Of a stretch of 22,024 nucleotides of DNA, positions 1 through 22,024 are shown piece after piece. This stretch comes from a virus: positions 1 to 22,024 of the IMG/VR virus record IMGVR_UViG_3300024518_002090; one strand, 5' to 3'. The position numbers were made by a program, and so were the translations under genes. Each line of letters starts with the position of its first letter. Position 1 is the first letter of the stretch. Under the pieces are notes generated by a model. That model searched no databases, was not told the origin of the DNA, and saw only the letters and a program-made list of their open reading frames with translations.

Positions 1-343
1 GTTCACAATGCCCTTCCCTCCCTCTGTGGGGGCTTGCTGGCGCGTCTTTGCTAACCGCTCAATACTTAGTAAGCGCGGGCGGGAATACAGGGAGGCGGCA
101 ATACAGGCAATAAAGGATCAGGGGTTAAGCGGTGAAAAATTGGATTCGAGGCTTAGCGTTTATATAAGAATGCACCCGCCAACACTCGCTAAGCGTGATG
201 TTGATAATTTCCTAAAGGCCCCACTTGACGCGCTAACTCATGCAGGATTTTGGGTTGACGACGAACAGATAGACAAGCTAACAATATGCAGAGCTGAAAA
301 AATAAAAGGGGGAAAGTTAATTGTCACTGTTAGAGAAATTTAA
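1..343 (+). CDS. rusA: RusA-family Holliday junction resolvase, 5' end cut by window
   Basis: Likely a RusA-family endonuclease that cuts Holliday junctions during phage recombination and replication. The frame is open to the window edge (codons Phe-Thr precede Met at 8-10), and FTMPFPPS lines up with the N-terminal ITLPWPPS of E. coli RusA, so the true start is probably just upstream of the window. Counting from the Met at 8, the family's acidic active site is visible: Asp64 and Asp66 in KRDVDN, Lys70 a few residues on, and Asp84/Asp85 in WVDDEQ. At 111 residues from that Met it is close to the 120 of E. coli RusA. The next small gene starts inside its last codons, so the two are co-transcribed. 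Family assignment is from motif recall; the active-site residues are directly visible. Confidence 0.88.
   Translation, partial: FTMPFPPSVGACWRVFANRSILSKRGREYREAAIQAIKDQGLSGEKLDSRLSVYIRMHPPTLAKRDVDNFLKAPLDALTHAGFWVDDEQIDKLTICRAEKIKGGKLIVTVREI
306..315 (+). promoter_or_regulatory. Ribosome binding site for the TTG-started 49-aa gene
   Basis: A purine-rich AGGGGGAAAG lies 5 bases before a TTG codon at 321. It is the reason for calling a gene at that TTG although no ATG is available in the frame. Confidence 0.5.
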
Positions 344-470
344 ATTGTGGCTGCGGAGCTTGGATAATCACCCACCTGCTGAATTATTTATTGGTGGGTT
401 AATCATAGTCGCGTACACCGGTATATTGGTTCATGGCTATATTTTGGCGAGGACGCTTGGTCATGGCTGA
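321..470 (+). CDS. Small single-pass membrane protein, TTG start
   Basis: A 49-residue protein read from TTG at 321 to TGA at 468-470. It has a basic amphipathic start (LLEKFKLWLRSL), then one hydrophobic stretch at about residues 22-43 (LFIGGLIIVAYTGILVHGY) that fits a single transmembrane helix, and a short tail. It overlaps the end of rusA by 23 bases and the preferred start of the NinB-like gene by 8 bases, which is typical of tightly packed phage operons, and it has a good purine-rich site upstream. I do not recognise the family. A holin-like or membrane-anchoring role is possible, but no lysis genes surround it. The TTG start and small size make it easy to miss; the overlap pattern and membrane helix are the main support. 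Confidence 0.6.
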   Translation: MSLLEKFKLWLRSLDNHPPAELFIGGLIIVAYTGILVHGYILARTLGHG

Positions 471-930
471 AGGATTCACGGTAAATTCAAAGCACACCCT
501 AGATTTTGCTATCAACTGGCTTAAGGATAACTTTGAAAAGAACAAATACAGCACGTATTCAGTCAGGCATGGTGCAGACCGCTCCATAGATCAAAATGCG
601 CTGTTTCATGTTTGGGCGCTTGAGTATGGATGCCATCTTTCTAAGTTACACCCAAAGGGCTTAGAGACGCTTGCACGCGAAGCAATCATTGAGCAAACAA
701 AGAGAGCGGCTAAGCGTAAGTTTTATTCAGAGTTCAGATATTCATGGATGGTAATTGTATTAACTGATCCGTTTACTGGTGAATCAAAGAAAGATTTGCG
801 AAGCAGTAAGGGATACAAAACCGCTGAAATGTTTGAGTTTTTAACTTGGCTGCAAGCAACCGCCATTAACGACGGGTGCTTGCTTGAGAGTAAAGGTGAA
901 TTTGCTAAGAAACAGCGTGATCAACCTTAG
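463..930 (+). CDS. NinB-like recombination protein
   Basis: A 155-residue protein resembling the NinB (lambda Orf) group, which binds single-stranded DNA and assists phage recombination. The clearest resemblance is RSIDQNALFHVWALEYG at about residues 40-56, which parallels RSLDQNRKLWACL of lambda NinB; lengths are similar (lambda NinB is 146). A central basic segment (TKRAAKRKFY) and a C-terminal SKGYKTAEMFEFLTWLQ helix follow. The frame opens at 433, but I chose ATG 463 because GAGG lies about 10 bases upstream and because the protein then starts MAEGFTVNSK, without the ill-fitting leader. It overlaps the stop of the small membrane gene. The location next to rusA, as in lambda nin regions, supports the call. 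The similarity is short, so the family is likely rather than certain. Confidence 0.6.
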   Translation: MAEGFTVNSKHTLDFAINWLKDNFEKNKYSTYSVRHGADRSIDQNALFHVWALEYGCHLSKLHPKGLETLAREAIIEQTKRAAKRKFYSEFRYSWMVIVLTDPFTGESKKDLRSSKGYKTAEMFEFLTWLQATAINDGCLLESKGEFAKKQRDQP

Positions 931-983: not shown

Positions 984-1550
984 ATGAAAAATATATTATT
1001 AGTATCGGTATTGTTTTTATCCGCATGTGGCGGTTCAGGCGACACCAGGCAAGAGCCTAAGGATAATCCCGCCGTGCCACAGAAGGATGTGCGATTTTTA
1101 GTGGCGGGTCAGTCAAACGCAGTGAGATGCGACTGGGATTATCTAGATATCAGCTATAAAAGCATAGCTGTAGGGTCACAATCCATTCAGGATTTAATTG
1201 ATATTTATGTAGATCAAGACTACGCCGCCTACGACGGTATATTGTTTGTGCACGGCGAGCAGGATGCCTACCTACTAACGGACCCAAAAATATATGTAGA
1301 TAAAGTTGAGGAGTACAGAAAAATGATAGGGCTTCCTATTTATATTTCGACGGTCGGTTATGATTTTAGATACTCCGGCAATCACGACCAAATCAGGGAT
1401 GCGGTAAACAGCGAAGCTAAGGCGAATAAAAACTGGACTGTAACTTTTAACGAGGCCCAGTATTTTCCTGAGTTAGGCAACCTTCTCGGAGATGGCGTTC
1501 ACTTTAACCAACAAGGCTGCGAGATGATGATGGATTATATTTTACCTTAG
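984..1550 (+). CDS. Lipoprotein with SGNH / sialate O-acetylesterase-type domain
   Basis: A 188-residue secreted esterase candidate. Residues 1-15 form a lipoprotein signal peptide ending in LSAC, so Cys15 should be lipidated; a Gly/Ser/Asp-rich linker follows. The rest carries SGNH-hydrolase blocks: GQSN at 42-45 with the presumed nucleophile Ser44, HGEQDA at 90-95 (block III-like), and DGVH at 170-173 with the presumed acid/base pair Asp170 and His173. The GQSN and GEQDA pattern is that of sialate O-acetylesterase-like carbohydrate esterases, which remove acetyl groups from sugars. It is short for the family, but all blocks are present. Residue after Cys15 is Gly, not Asp, so outer-membrane sorting is expected. 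No clear Shine-Dalgarno is seen before ATG 984. Its stop lies 4 bp from the convergent tailspike stop. A role in altering host surface glycan is inferred from context. Confidence 0.75.
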   Translation: MKNILLVSVLFLSACGGSGDTRQEPKDNPAVPQKDVRFLVAGQSNAVRCDWDYLDISYKSIAVGSQSIQDLIDIYVDQDYAAYDGILFVHGEQDAYLLTDPKIYVDKVEEYRKMIGLPIYISTVGYDFRYSGNHDQIRDAVNSEAKANKNWTVTFNEAQYFPELGNLLGDGVHFNQQGCEMMMDYILP

Positions 1551-1554
1551 CAGG

Positions 1555-3294
1555 CTAAAGCTGCATTATTCCGTAAAACCATATATTACCGAAATACATT
1601 CTAGCCTCACTAGATCTATCCGACCCGTCAAACTTTATCAATCTGTTTGAGTTTTTATTAAAGTTGAAGCTCATAGATGTTGTTTCTGCGCCAGTGTACA
1701 GATCTAATGCCCCGCCGTTAACGTATATAAAATTCACAGTCGCTGTATTATCGCCGACGACTTTTAATGAGGGTATGTATGGGACTATGCCGCCTGTCGA
1801 ACTTGGAGTTAAGCTAACATCACTGCCCAAGCAAAATGAATGTGAAAGCTCCAGATTACCGGCGCTATAAGACATATCCGCAAGTGGATTCACCGCATTT
1901 GTGGTGTAAATAGTCCCTTGATCCGTGCCCATTGACACCTTCCATCCCACACCATTCCAGTAAACCCTCCCCGCAACCGTCTTATTTAGCGAGGCTCTGA
2001 ACGCAATCGCGCTAGTCGATACTGATGACCCTATCACCATGCCCTGAGCGCCTGCTATTGTCTCATCAGGCCCAACCATCATCGTTAAAACCTTAGAGTA
2101 AGTTTTAGTGAACGGGACTAACAGTCCGTAGCCTGACGCATCGGATCTGACAGGTACGGAATCATTAACACCTAGCGGCTCATGGGAGCTATCTTTTATC
2201 CACTCCCATACGTCTGTACCAAATACGGTAATAGTTCCCGTCGCGGGTGTAGTTAGGCCCGAATCAACTAAAACTCTATATGTATCTACGTTGTCAACCT
2301 GAGCTATTTCTGCGGTTCCGTTGTACCCAGTTTCGACAGCCCCCTGTATAAAAACAAAATCTCCAACAGCCCTGCCGTGAGCAACTTCATTAACAATCCC
2401 GGAAGTCCCGCTGCGTGTAATGCCCGCTACCGCTGTTGGTTGCTCTTGTCGTATTGTCCCGCAAATAATTTCTATCCCTTTGTCTTTTAACTCTGGTGCA
2501 TGGGAGTATCCGTATATAGCACCAGCCGAGTGGCCAATAGCGTTTAAGTCGTCTGCTGTATCCGTTCCGGCAAGCTCAGTGGCAAGGTCGCCAAGAAACA
2601 CAAACGCGGTAGTACCTACCGATGCCCCAGACGAAACGTATCCGCTGGCAGACGCAGAAACTATGACTACGCTTGCTGCCGCCGACGCTGATGTAAATTT
2701 AGCTGTATCATCTGCAACCCCGTCGCCTACTGGTGCCCACCAGTCTAGATGTGCGGAACCACTGAAGCCCCTAACCGCCGCAAAACTCCCCCCAGTAATG
2801 ATAGTCCCAGCATTATCAACATTCGACCCAATAGCCTCTATAACGAAATCACCGGTTATTCCTGAGCCTGTGACCTTTACAACATCCCCCGCCACATAAT
2901 CACTAGCCGCTAATGCTGTGCGTAGTAGTGCGTAGGTGGCCTGGGTTTGATTGTCCAAGTAGTCCTGCAAAAGCCTATCTGTGCCGTTAATCTCAACTGT
3001 GATATTAGTCGCGCCAAGTATCGCACCGCTTAGATCCTCAAAAACTGGAACACCATCAACGTCATCAACTATGAAGGAATAATCACCGTCTAAATACAGC
3101 TTTTGCGCTACCTTCCCGCCAGAGGTTAGCGTCTGAGTGGTTGCAGCCGGAAGCGTTAAAGCAGCGTCAAGATAGGGCGTCTTAACGTTAGTCTTTGCAT
3201 CTTGATTTGGCAGCCCAAAATATACAGTGCCAAGGGCGTTAACCTCGCCGGAGTCAAGGAAAAAAGGTACGTCTGTGTTTATAAATCTGCTCAT
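1555..3294 (-). CDS. Tailspike with P22-type head-binding domain
   Basis: The receptor-binding tailspike, expected as a trimer on the tail. Residues 1 to about 90 resemble the P22 gp9 head-binding domain: GTVYFGLPNQDAKTN, TLTSGGKVAQKLYLDGDYSF and a closing VFEDLSG match the pattern of that fold (G.iYIG, G..V.dG, Y.i.v.d). The motif GDGVADDT at 190-197 marks the usual entry into a tailspike body domain. Residues about 292-357 contain an AHGRAVGDFVFIQGA.....YNGT segment, a small beta domain common in phage fibres. The remainder, to 579, is Ser/Gly/Thr-rich beta sequence. It is shorter than P22 gp9 (666), and I cannot identify catalytic residues, so enzymatic cleavage of polysaccharide is not shown. 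GAGGA lies just upstream of the ATG, and the gene follows the ejection genes as the last in the late operon. Confidence 0.85.
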   Translation of the reverse strand: MSRFINTDVPFFLDSGEVNALGTVYFGLPNQDAKTNVKTPYLDAALTLPAATTQTLTSGGKVAQKLYLDGDYSFIVDDVDGVPVFEDLSGAILGATNITVEINGTDRLLQDYLDNQTQATYALLRTALAASDYVAGDVVKVTGSGITGDFVIEAIGSNVDNAGTIITGGSFAAVRGFSGSAHLDWWAPVGDGVADDTAKFTSASAAASVVIVSASASGYVSSGASVGTTAFVFLGDLATELAGTDTADDLNAIGHSAGAIYGYSHAPELKDKGIEIICGTIRQEQPTAVAGITRSGTSGIVNEVAHGRAVGDFVFIQGAVETGYNGTAEIAQVDNVDTYRVLVDSGLTTPATGTITVFGTDVWEWIKDSSHEPLGVNDSVPVRSDASGYGLLVPFTKTYSKVLTMMVGPDETIAGAQGMVIGSSVSTSAIAFRASLNKTVAGRVYWNGVGWKVSMGTDQGTIYTTNAVNPLADMSYSAGNLELSHSFCLGSDVSLTPSSTGGIVPYIPSLKVVGDNTATVNFIYVNGGALDLYTGAETTSMSFNFNKNSNRLIKFDGSDRSSEARMYFGNIWFYGIMQL

Positions 3295-19093: not shown

Positions 19094-19579
19094 TTAACCT
19101 TCTGTACCTTGATCTGAAGCGTTTATTCGCCCTTCAACACTTAACCCTGTACCGTCTATTATGCCCGATACAGAAAATGATTCAAAAAACAAGCCTGTAA
19201 CACCCTCGCCATTATCAATGATTCTAGCGTCAACACTTGTGCCGTTTGGGTTTATATCGCCCTCTACTGCAAATGATTCTGTAATCAAGCCGTTAACCCC
19301 CTCGCCTAGCTCTAGTATTCTTGCGTAAACTCCTATGCCATTAGCGCTTAATAGACCCTGGACCGCAAAGGATTGAGCTATCTCACCAGCAACACCTTCA
19401 CCATTTGAAATTATCCTAGCCGCTAATGCCGCGCCGGTTTCGTCTATCTCGCCTTCAATGGCAAAAGATGTGACTATTAAACCTTCAACACCTATACCCG
19501 GTACAGGCTCCGCTACTGAGGTTGCGCCCCAAGAGTCTAGCCATGCTGTTAGCCATGAGTTGCCCCACGAGCTAGCCAC
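19094..19579 (-). CDS. Protein of four 32-residue repeats with W-rich N-terminus
   Basis: A 161-residue protein starting at GTG, placed immediately after the TAA of the large gene upstream, with GGGGG seven bases before it. The N-terminus is tryptophan-rich with a repeated W-G-N-S-W type motif (SSWGNSWLTAWLDSWG). From residue 27 to 154 there are four tandem 32-residue repeats with the consensus GEGV.GLI..SFAVEG.I...G..V.ARII. The regular hydrophobic alternation suggests a repeat beta structure, perhaps a short fibre or stalk, trimeric or solenoid. No signal or membrane segment is seen. I do not recognise a characterised family; the repeat is visible directly. Confidence 0.6.
   Translation of the reverse strand: MASSWGNSWLTAWLDSWGATSVAEPVPGIGVEGLIVTSFAIEGEIDETGAALAARIISNGEGVAGEIAQSFAVQGLLSANGIGVYARILELGEGVNGLITESFAVEGDINPNGTSVDARIIDNGEGVTGLFFESFSVSGIIDGTGLSVEGRINASDQGTEG
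19118..19501 (-). repeat. Four tandem 96-bp coding repeats
   Basis: Coding repeats of 96 bp (32 codons), at 19406-19501, 19310-19405, 19214-19309 and 19118-19213 in reading order. The copies have diverged in DNA while keeping the protein pattern (phrases such as GEGV, SFAV and ARII recur), which points to selection on the protein. Confidence 0.7.
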
Positions 19580-22024
19580 TTATGGCCCCCACTCATCACC
19601 AGATGCGCCTGTACCCGATACTGTTACATCATTTACTGATTGAATGTTGGAGTCTACTTGGTTGGCCACGGTGTACGTTAGCGGGTCCGTCTTAACCTTA
19701 ACGGCGTCTGATACGGTTTTAACCGCTGCTATATCTGTTGATACGTCTACCGCCGGAGTGCCTACAAGTGTAGTTAGTGATGCCTCAAGAGCTGTTCCGA
19801 ATAGTTGGTTACTTTCGGGTGTGGTTAATCCGCTTACGCCCGTCTCCGTTACAAGTGGAACGCCGGAATAATCCATAAATATAGAATTACCAGTCGTGTC
19901 GTAAGGGCTTGTAAAATCGCTGCGATAGTATCGGATATCATTATCAACAAACTGGAAGTTACCTACGGATGTTTTCTCAATTACAACATCAACAACAGAT
20001 ACCTCTTGACGTATTGACGCTGAGCTTTCTACGACATACGCGCCCCAGAAGTTCCACATACCACTACCGGTGGCTAGTATTGATGCCCACCAACTAACCA
20101 TTTCTGTTTTTTCGCCAGACCCCGAACCTATAATATCAATATCAATATTGGTTCCATCTTCTGCGTATTTAGTGATTGTGCTCGCATCCCATGCCCACGC
20201 CTCAACATCTGTCCAGCTAACTTGCGAAATAGGGGCGGTAAAGCCGGCACTGCTCACAATACCTGTTACCTCTACTGGCTCGTAGTAAGTGGTGGTATTT
20301 TGACGCATCCCTCTAACTCGGAAAGTATCACCTGAACTGAACTCCTCGCCATCCGTATAATTTAGGCTCCAGTCTGAAGCCTGAGAGCCATCCTCAACTA
20401 ATATGCTCATTGTTGTCCAAACAGCCGTACCATCTGCTGTAGTGTTGCCTGGTGTAGTATCCCAAGTTGGCTCACTACCACCGCTTGTGCCTGCTGTTGT
20501 GCATCGCATCCACAATAAATTAGGGTATGTGCCAATGCCTGTAGTTCTTAACGCCTTATCACCGATAACATAAGCGGTGGTTGCTGCCCAGTCACTAGCA
20601 TTTAAAGCTGTGTCGTTAATAGCCTGTATGTATGAATTTGCTATTAGCCCAAGAGTTGAAGCCGTTGCAGTTACCGCTGGCGTGTAATACGTACCATCGT
20701 TTGATTGAAAGCGTGTGAAATCTGGATGATCACTACCACCACGGCTTACATAAAATCCATGATCCCCTGCTACGCCCTCAACCAGTCCCTGTATTGTGTC
20801 GTATGCAGAGCCTAACTCACCGACTATTTCAGGCCAGTTAAAGGGGTCTTTGCCTTGGTATGTGGCGTCCAAGCTTAGGTTGTAATTAATCTCCCTAAGT
20901 ATATTTGTACCAGAGTTTGCACCGCCATCTTGCACTTCATAATCGAATGATTTTGTACCAACTACTAGGGGCGCACCGGTATGATCAACAATAGTAATAG
21001 TAATTGCTGGGTCACCTGTAGCCGCTGCTATTGCGACCGGCTCCATCGCTACTATGTATAGAATTGGGCTTAGTGTTGATATGCCGTAATCGCTTAGAAC
21101 ATCAGAGCGGGATTCTCTGTAACCGTTGGGCTGGTATTTAAGAACTAAGTGTCCACGGTAATCAAAATTGCCATGACTGGCATCACCATAAGTTTTAATA
21201 ACTTCATTGAATATTCCGCTTGCTCTTGCGTCTGTGGTGGTGGTGCCGTCTATCTGCTGGAACTCTCCCGTGAATCCCGTAGCTGTACCAGATGACTTAA
21301 TACCGCTCCAGCTAGCTGTGGTTGCTACCGCTGCTGATAAGTACTCGACACCGGCCTCTATCATATTCTCAATGCTGGCATCTGTTGCACCTTCAGCATC
21401 TTCCACTAAGTACAGTGATGCCGCCCCATCCATCTCTAGATTAAACGCTGTGTTTCTCAGTGCAGTCTCAGCTATAAAGCTGTCAATCATTAGACTAAAC
21501 ACGCCTTGAGCTGTCACACCCCATGTGGGTACCGTTAATTCATTCAATGATCTAGACCAGCTAGCGTCTGTTGTGTACGTCAAGCCGTGGCTAGAATCAT
21601 ACTCTCTCGATGCTACTAGATTAATCGTAGTGCTGGACGTACCACTCAGTGTGACACCTGTGAACCTTTGAGGGATAAAGCCTGCTTTTTGAACCGTATA
21701 ATCAACCGTTTGCCCAGTGTGGGTAAAGACTAAAGATGACCCTGTAGCGCTATCCAGAAGAGTCTGCGTTGCAGTTGTGAAGATTCTTATTGTTGAGCCA
21801 GTCTCACTTGAAGTAATAGTAAAGTCATCGGTAGGTGCTGATATAGTAATTGAACCACCAGCAGTAGAAGTGGTAGTGCTGATACCTGCTGCTAGCTGTA
21901 CTGTAATCGCGTTAGTAGCTGAGTCGTTGTGAACCAGCATAGTGTGACCGGCTTCAACTGTAAGCCCTGTCATAATGTAAGTACCGGCCCCTCCTGAACC
22001 TAAAGTAAGATCCTTACCTGAGTT
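19580..22024 (-). CDS. Large structural/fibre-like protein, 5' end cut by window
   Basis: At least 814 codons. An ATG lies at 21971-21973, but the frame is open to the window edge and the residues before it (KDLTLGSGGAGTYIMTGLTV) read as continuous beta sequence, so the gene probably starts outside. Counted from that Met: an Ig-like stretch at about 73-120, a helical/beta core at about 130-440 (WSRSLNELTVPTWGVTAQ, YRGHLVLKYQPNGYRE), a module at 461-522 of the SDWAATTAYVIGD ... GSEPTWDTTPGNTTADGT type that looks like a small carbohydrate-binding domain, and a C-terminal VKTKTD-like coil ending in GDEWGP, a common end of phage structural proteins. It is probably a minor virion or fibre protein. 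No enzymatic motif is identified. Confidence 0.6.
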   Translation of the reverse strand, partial: NSGKDLTLGSGGAGTYIMTGLTVEAGHTMLVHNDSATNAITVQLAAGISTTTSTAGGSITISAPTDDFTITSSETGSTIRIFTTATQTLLDSATGSSLVFTHTGQTVDYTVQKAGFIPQRFTGVTLSGTSSTTINLVASREYDSSHGLTYTTDASWSRSLNELTVPTWGVTAQGVFSLMIDSFIAETALRNTAFNLEMDGAASLYLVEDAEGATDASIENMIEAGVEYLSAAVATTASWSGIKSSGTATGFTGEFQQIDGTTTTDARASGIFNEVIKTYGDASHGNFDYRGHLVLKYQPNGYRESRSDVLSDYGISTLSPILYIVAMEPVAIAAATGDPAITITIVDHTGAPLVVGTKSFDYEVQDGGANSGTNILREINYNLSLDATYQGKDPFNWPEIVGELGSAYDTIQGLVEGVAGDHGFYVSRGGSDHPDFTRFQSNDGTYYTPAVTATASTLGLIANSYIQAINDTALNASDWAATTAYVIGDKALRTTGIGTYPNLLWMRCTTAGTSGGSEPTWDTTPGNTTADGTAVWTTMSILVEDGSQASDWSLNYTDGEEFSSGDTFRVRGMRQNTTTYYEPVEVTGIVSSAGFTAPISQVSWTDVEAWAWDASTITKYAEDGTNIDIDIIGSGSGEKTEMVSWWASILATGSGMWNFWGAYVVESSASIRQEVSVVDVVIEKTSVGNFQFVDNDIRYYRSDFTSPYDTTGNSIFMDYSGVPLVTETGVSGLTTPESNQLFGTALEASLTTLVGTPAVDVSTDIAAVKTVSDAVKVKTDPLTYTVANQVDSNIQSVNDVTVSGTGASGDEWGP

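What the first reader, a model, noticed from the sequence alone, without database searches (positions are those of the whole stretch)
984..1550. Secreted lipoprotein esterase next to the tailspike: a possible receptor-deacetylating conversion gene
A lipobox (LSAC) joined to a complete SGNH/sialate O-acetylesterase pattern (GQSN, HGEQDA, DGVH) predicts an enzyme anchored to the host envelope, not a virion part. P22-like phages often place O-antigen-altering genes beside the tailspike (for example acetyltransferases or glucosyltransferases). An esterase that removes acetyl groups would be the reverse strategy: changing the receptor to exclude later phages or prevent readsorption of progeny. I know of virion-bound phage deacetylases, but not of a lipoprotein form used this way.
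Basis: partly seen in the sequence, partly recalled or inferred. Interest (0 to 1): 0.7.

Follow-up and report, generated by a model that had tools for sequence, protein, structure and literature searches.

The report
Phage-encoded surface-anchored mini sugar esterase
A virus of bacteria carries a small enzyme, tethered to the envelope of the infected cell, that probably clips acetyl groups off the cell's own sugars; it sits beside the virus's attachment-protein gene, where related viruses keep genes that disguise the cell surface, but what it acts on is untested.

Summary
ORF 984-1550 (+) encodes a 188-aa predicted lipoprotein (LSAC lipobox) with a compact SGNH hydrolase domain of the SASA type: GQSN, HGEQD and DGVH, predicted fold Z 14 to SGNH enzymes. 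One true relative was found, in another P22-like viral contig: 41-42% identical, with its own lipobox and the same motifs. It passes Pfam's SASA threshold; the window protein alone does not. Both genes end a replication/recombination operon and converge on the tailspike gene, but the two tailspikes show no detectable similarity. P22 (gtrABC) and Sf6 (oac) keep their O-antigen-altering genes in the same convergent position. Other phage SASA domains found here are tail-type proteins with about 70 more residues between the first two motifs, so this is a miniature, envelope-anchored version. The receptor-altering role is plausible but inferred. Against it: presence is sporadic and not tied to tailspike type, no tyrosine integrase was found in relatives (lysogenic 'conversion' is unsupported), and an outer-membrane lipoprotein would by default face the periplasm, where peptidoglycan is a rival substrate. 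A non-virion phage SASA esterase has a precedent in NanS-p of Stx phages. Verdict: real, well-typed accessory enzyme; new variant of a known kind; function untested.

The parts
984..1550 (+). Mini-SASA lipoprotein esterase gene, 188 aa
   Evidence: ORF; relative in IMGVR_UViG_3300022693_000624, E 1e-36; fold
984..1028 (+). Signal peptide and lipobox L-S-A-C; C15 is the predicted lipidated cysteine
   Evidence: Read directly from the sequence; relative has LISC in the same place
1029..1091 (+). Linker of about 20 residues (16-36), poorly conserved, between the lipidated Cys and the enzyme domain
   Evidence: A1 alignment
1107..1118 (+). Block I GQSN: nucleophile S44, oxyanion-hole Q43
   Evidence: Invariant GQS in a 14-sequence alignment; role by family knowledge (PMC9487903)
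1251..1265 (+). Block III HGEQD, the SASA-type motif
   Evidence: H, G, E, D invariant
1491..1502 (+). Block V DGVH: D170 and H173, acid/base of the triad
   Evidence: D and H invariant
433..930 (+). NinB/Orf-like recombination gene upstream on the same strand
   Evidence: PHROG 72, E 5e-9
8..343 (+). RusA-like Holliday junction resolvase, same strand
   Evidence: Pfam RusA 3.5e-13, PHROG 34
1555..3294 (-). Tailspike / tail-fibre gene, convergent with the esterase gene
   Evidence: PHROG tail fiber 1e-8; C-terminus 68-69% identical to two other viral contigs

Best explanation
The gene encodes a small SASA-type carbohydrate O-acetylesterase that is exported by the infected host, lipidated at C15 and anchored in the envelope, most likely the outer membrane (residue +2 is Gly, not Asp). 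There it removes O-acetyl (or similar ester) groups from a host envelope polysaccharide, most probably O-antigen or capsule units passing through the periplasm. The altered glycan would no longer be a good receptor, so superinfecting phages are excluded and progeny do not stick to debris. Shown by sequence and model: lipoprotein signal, SASA motifs, SGNH fold, conserved position. Inferred: lipidation and sorting, catalysis, substrate, and benefit. Confidence by step: lipoprotein about 0.9; SASA-type esterase about 0.9; acts on an envelope glycan about 0.65; receptor/adsorption benefit about 0.4.
For: Lipobox in both members. The relative passes the Pfam SASA cut-off, 29.7 against 24.8 bits. 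A profile of 12 phage tail SASA domains, built without the two lipoproteins, ranks both above 395 decoy ORFs (E 1e-5 and 2.6e-4; best decoy 1.5). AlphaFold model pLDDT 72, pTM 0.68; VIA Z 14.3 to SGNH hydrolases, 153 of 156 residues, rmsd 2.7. The gene converges on the tailspike gene in window and relative, as P22 gtrC and Sf6 oac do. O-acetylation by Sf6 Oac causes superinfection immunity (PMC9558356). A receptor-masking benefit has been proposed for phage O-antigen-modifying genes in lytic phages too (PMC12373910).
Against: No substrate evidence. Not coupled to tailspike type. Absent from the same junction in G005 and G006 and not seen in two isolate genomes. The slot can hold ordinary genes (a RuvC-like ORF in G006). 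By default outer-membrane lipoproteins face the periplasm. The window protein alone scores below the Pfam cut-off (11.7 bits). The structural model used an alignment containing SASA tail domains, so the fold call is not fully independent of that alignment.
Confidence: 0.42

Rival explanations
1. Lysis helper: the lipoprotein faces the periplasm and removes O-acetyl groups from peptidoglycan (or loosens outer-membrane glycan contacts), so that the endolysin can cut the wall.
For: Default periplasmic orientation of outer-membrane lipoproteins. Among the best structural matches are the SGNH domains of peptidoglycan O-acetyltransferases OatA and PatB. A phage esterase that helps lysis is known in mycobacteriophage Ms6 (LysB, PMC5707550, listed).
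Against: Not in a lysis cassette: in the relative the DUF5675 gene and the adjacent 170-aa ORF lie about 3.5 kb away on the other strand, and the gene ends an ERF/SSB operon. SASA motifs are typical of carbohydrate/sialate esterases, not of peptidoglycan esterases. A shared fold shows no function.
Confidence: 0.2
2. Host-benefit or metabolic cargo, like NanS-p of Stx phages: the enzyme releases acetyl groups from environmental glycans so the host can use the sugars during infection.
For: Phage-encoded non-virion SASA esterases exist (NanS-p, PMC10462455). SASA enzymes are mostly sialate or xylan acetylesterases (PMC9487903).
Against: NanS-p is a three-domain protein next to stx in temperate phages. 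This one is a single mini-domain lipoprotein in a group with no integrase detected, where a growth advantage to the host would be short-lived.
Confidence: 0.12
3. Envelope esterase acting on another ester (acyl lipid, thioester), or SGNH acyltransferase partner of a host membrane acyltransferase, as PatB works with PatA.
For: Structural neighbours include TesA, OatA and PatB; SGNH domains can act in acyl transfer (PMC9558356).
Against: Block III HGE and Q43 are the SASA carbohydrate-esterase signature; no membrane partner gene is adjacent.
Confidence: 0.1
4. Virion-bound deacetylase: the protein is a separate virion component that works with the tailspike during adsorption.
For: Other phage SASA/SGNH domains are parts of large tail-type proteins; a related isolate's tailspike has a weak GDSL-like match.
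Against: Lipoprotein export signal, no head- or tail-binding domain, opposite strand to the late genes, linked to recombination genes.
Confidence: 0.03

Closest known systems
SASA family, PF03629 / CAZy CE6 (E. coli NanS, A. thaliana At4g34215, C. acetobutylicum 1ZMB)
   Same: GQSN block I with Gln next to the Ser, Gly-Glu block III, D-x-x-H block V, SGNH fold.
   Different: Only 156-aa domain; 48-51 residues between motifs I and III against 118-156 in most phage tail versions; HGE instead of HQGE; lipoprotein.
Phage tail-borne SGNH/SASA deacetylases (e.g. Acinetobacter phage Aristophanes, PMC8471582, read only as a search result)
   Same: Same motif set; phage-encoded; proposed to act on host surface polysaccharide.
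   Different: Those are parts of virion proteins used for entry; this one is predicted to be exported and anchored in the infected cell.
Sf6 oac and P22 gtrABC O-antigen conversion genes
   Same: Convergent with and immediately next to the 3' end of the tailspike gene; envelope location; acyl modification in the case of oac.
   Different: Opposite chemistry to oac (removal, not addition); no homology; no integrase/attP next to it; temperate phages there, probably not here.
NanS-p of Stx phages (PMC10462455)
   Same: Phage-encoded, non-virion SASA sialate O-acetylesterase.
   Different: Three-domain protein encoded between the Q and holin genes next to stx; host-growth role suggested.
Phage superinfection-exclusion lipoproteins (T5 Llp; from general knowledge)
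   Same: Phage lipoprotein in the infected cell's outer membrane affecting receptor use.
   Different: Llp binds and blocks a protein receptor and is not an enzyme.

Membership tests
SASA (PF03629/CE6) | Block I GQS with Gln adjacent to nucleophilic Ser | tested here: met
   G42 Q43 S44 invariant with 13 other sequences; family definition from PMC9487903
SASA (PF03629/CE6) | Block III (H)QGE motif replacing the classical Asn | tested here: inconclusive
   HGEQD: Gly-Glu kept, Gln replaced by His; the same HGE form occurs in phage domains that pass the Pfam SASA cut-off (L157, L064, L037, L122)
SASA (PF03629/CE6) | Block V D-x-x-H | tested here: met
   D170/H173, invariant D and H
SASA (PF03629/CE6) | Profile score above the curated cut-off | tested here: inconclusive
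   Window 11.7 bits, below 24.8; its relative 29.7, above; independent tail-SASA profile finds both
SASA (PF03629/CE6) | SGNH alpha/beta/alpha fold | tested here: met
   VIA Z 14.3 over 153 residues, rmsd 2.7, on a model of pLDDT 72
SASA (PF03629/CE6) | Ser-Asp-His arranged for catalysis | tested here: inconclusive
   Geometry not measured; the TesA range offsets (model 3..156 to chain 1..172) place S44/D170/H173 at S10/D154/H157 if no indels intervene at the two ends (inference)
SASA (PF03629/CE6) | Carbohydrate O-acetylesterase activity | not testable with these tools
   Needs purified enzyme
Bacterial lipoprotein | Short positive n-region, hydrophobic core, lipobox with Cys | tested here: met
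   MKNILLVSVLFLSAC and MKYLLVLILVTLISC in the relative; judged by motif, no signal-peptide predictor available
Phage O-antigen conversion gene (Oac/Gtr class) | Convergent, tailspike-adjacent location | tested here: met
Phage O-antigen conversion gene (Oac/Gtr class) | Own promoter and expression from the prophage of a temperate phage | tested here: inconclusive
   No sigma-70-like site scored just upstream of the gene; in the relative it follows the previous gene directly; no tyrosine integrase in nine related records, most of them fragments
Phage O-antigen conversion gene (Oac/Gtr class) | Changes the phage's own receptor | not testable with these tools
   No isolate, no host
NanS-p (Stx phages) | Three-domain architecture, located between Q and holin next to stx | tested here: not met
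   Single 156-aa domain behind a lipoprotein signal, between NinB and tailspike genes
Virion-bound tail deacetylase | Catalytic domain within a large tail protein | tested here: not met
   Stand-alone 188-aa ORF on the opposite strand to the late genes

The most novel reading that the evidence does not exclude
A class of receptor-stripping phage genes: miniature SASA esterases displayed as host-envelope lipoproteins that remove O-acetyl groups from the receptor glycan during the lytic cycle, the chemical reverse of Sf6 Oac, carried in the same tailspike-adjacent position.
Probability: 0.3. Interest if true: 0.7.

Novelty: new variant of a known kind. Interest (0 to 1): 0.42.

Why it matters
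Known phage seroconversion mostly adds groups to the O-antigen (acetyl, glucosyl) or alters its synthesis, and known phage deacetylases are mostly virion parts used for entry. An envelope-anchored esterase made after infection would be a simple, catalytic way for a phage, perhaps a virulent one, to erase its receptor. If true it gives a one-gene tool to test whether lytic phages modify receptors to avoid superinfection or losing progeny to debris. If the rival holds, it is a new lysis accessory enzyme.

Tried and rejected
tblastn of the window protein and its relative against 50,697 phage records, and of the window protein against plasmids: no match. Pattern and profile scans of IMG/VR and GTDB genomes found no further member; the three GTDB pattern matches were not examined further and are taken as probable chance. 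L088, which scored against the A1 profile, was rejected: a tail protein without block I, selected by the motif pattern itself. PHROG Rz-like spanin match (E 0.31) and PDB RAG1 match (E 0.15) rejected as chance or signal-peptide matches. Single-sequence AlphaFold model unusable, pLDDT 38. A promoter for the gene was considered: a TATAAT at 951-956 lacks a matching -35 element, and a terminator-like hairpin at 931-944 is no more than chance predicts. NanS, At4g34215 and 1ZMB were not among the listed structural rows; that is not evidence against SASA.

Full report
What was checked. The window is a 22,024-base IMG/VR virus record, a fragment of a P22-like podovirus: portal (Pfam P22_portal, 8e-101), coat (P22_CoatProtein, 5e-49), terminase and head-closure genes lie on the minus strand, and RusA and NinB on the plus strand at the left end. 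Shuffling the protein 200,000 times never gave the motif set.

It is a conserved gene. The window protein has no match in 50,697 phage records or in the plasmid collection. Searching contigs related through the terminase gave one relative, in IMGVR_UViG_3300022693_000624 (G003, locus L018 4650-5246, E 1e-36). It is 41-42% identical, begins MKYLLVLILVTLISCGKSS, and keeps GQSNALRCDW, HGESDA and DNVHF. Differences fall mostly at third codon positions (0.66 against 0.47 and 0.36; dS saturated). No third member was found with the scans available.

What family. The relative passes the Pfam SASA cut-off (29.7 against 24.8 bits); the window protein alone does not (11.7). The SASA signature, as reviewed in PMC9487903, is a Gln beside the nucleophilic Ser in block I and a (H)QGE motif in block III in place of the classical Asn. 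Here Q43-S44 and HGE are present; His replaces the Gln, as it also does in phage tail domains that pass the Pfam SASA cut-off. A profile of 12 such tail domains, built without the two lipoproteins, ranks both above 395 decoy ORFs (E 1e-5 and 2.6e-4; best decoy 1.5). Those tail domains were picked by motif pattern, so this test is supportive rather than fully independent. In a 14-sequence alignment the invariant columns are G-Q-S, H-G-E-x-D, one Tyr and D-x-x-H.

Structure. Folding alone failed (pLDDT 38). With the alignment the mature domain gave pLDDT 72, pTM 0.68. It matches SGNH hydrolases over nearly its whole length (4rw0 Z 14.3, TesA about 14, OatA C-terminal domain 13.7, Bacteroides sialate O-acetylesterase 13.2-13.3; Foldseek top hits OatA). 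The ends of the TesA alignment (model 3-156 to chain 1-172) would put S44, D170 and H173 on TesA's S10, D154 and H157 if there are no indels near the ends; this is an inference, since coordinates could not be measured.

What is unusual. Other phage proteins with this motif pairing are ORFs of roughly 400-1,100 residues with mostly 118-156 residues between GQS and HGE; the two lipoproteins have 48-51. They are compact SASA domains behind a lipoprotein signal and a linker, so they are most simply read as envelope enzymes of the infected cell, not virion parts.

Position. In the window the stop of the esterase ORF and the end of the tailspike ORF are 4 bp apart, on opposite strands. In G003 the esterase ORF overlaps the convergent tailspike ORF by 14 bp. 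The window tailspike has no match in G003, which has a P22-type head-binding tailspike. So the gene is kept at the junction while the tailspike differs. In G003 it starts 2 bp after the upstream gene with a good ribosome-binding sequence, in an operon with ERF and a putative SSB gene, which suggests early or middle expression. At the same junction G006 has a RuvC-like ORF and G005 has no esterase; G001 and G002, which share the window's tailspike C-terminus at 68-69%, and two isolate genomes have no SASA match (note that this Pfam scan also missed the window's own gene). P22 places gtrC convergent with the tailspike gene, about 60 bp away, and Sf6 places oac convergent, about 35 bp away. Sf6 Oac acetylates the O-antigen and blocks superinfection (PMC9558356).

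How it most likely works. I favour an exported, lipid-anchored O-acetylesterase that strips acetyl groups from host envelope glycan and so lowers receptor use by later phages or by progeny. Lipidation, catalysis, substrate and benefit are inferences. Two points temper it. An outer-membrane lipoprotein by default faces the periplasm, so it would act on glycan in transit, or on peptidoglycan (a lysis role, the main rival). And no tyrosine integrase was found in nine related records (two are isolate genomes, the rest mostly fragments), so a lytic-cycle role is more likely than lysogenic conversion. A benefit of receptor masking for lytic phages has been proposed for other O-antigen-modifying phage genes (PMC12373910).

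Novelty. SASA esterases, tail-borne phage deacetylases, tailspike-adjacent conversion genes and a non-virion phage SASA enzyme (NanS-p, PMC10462455) are all known. The combination of a miniature SASA domain, lipoprotein anchoring and this position was not found in the literature searches made here, which cover open-licence PMC papers only. I rate it a new variant of a known kind, of moderate interest until its substrate is known.

Noticed in passing
window 1555-3294 (-); L002 5512-7182; L003 5197-7119: The window tailspike's C-terminal part (about residues 186-579) is 68-69% identical to tail fibres of two other viral contigs with different N-termini; G001 has an unrelated, non-podovirus-like gene order. 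This suggests a receptor-binding module swapped between phage types.
   Followed up: partly
L002 7189-8220; L003 7123-8145: Directly downstream of that shared tail fibre both contigs carry a related gene of about 340 aa with a signal-peptide-like start; it is not seen in the window. It could be another receptor- or envelope-related companion gene.
   Followed up: no
L018 3056-3466 (+): In the relative's operon, upstream of the esterase, is a second small lipoprotein (lipobox VTGC) matching Pfam PF25682 (Phage_VG64, 2.6e-51).
   Followed up: no
window 19094-19579 (-): A 161-aa ORF upstream of the terminase genes appears to be built of about four near repeats of a 36-residue unit (GEGVxGLIxxSFAVEGxIxxxGxxVxARIxxN).
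   Followed up: no
window 19580-22024 (-): A large ORF (at least 797 aa, running off the window) lies upstream of the terminase genes, an unusual place for a structural-looking protein in a P22-like phage.
   Followed up: no
L025 15003-19526 (Pseudoalteromonas virus vB_PspP-H6/1): The tailspike of a related isolate has a weak GDSL-lipase match (PF13472, 26.1 bits, below the cut-off 32.9) at residues 589-656, a possible virion-borne SGNH domain in the same phage group.
   Followed up: partly
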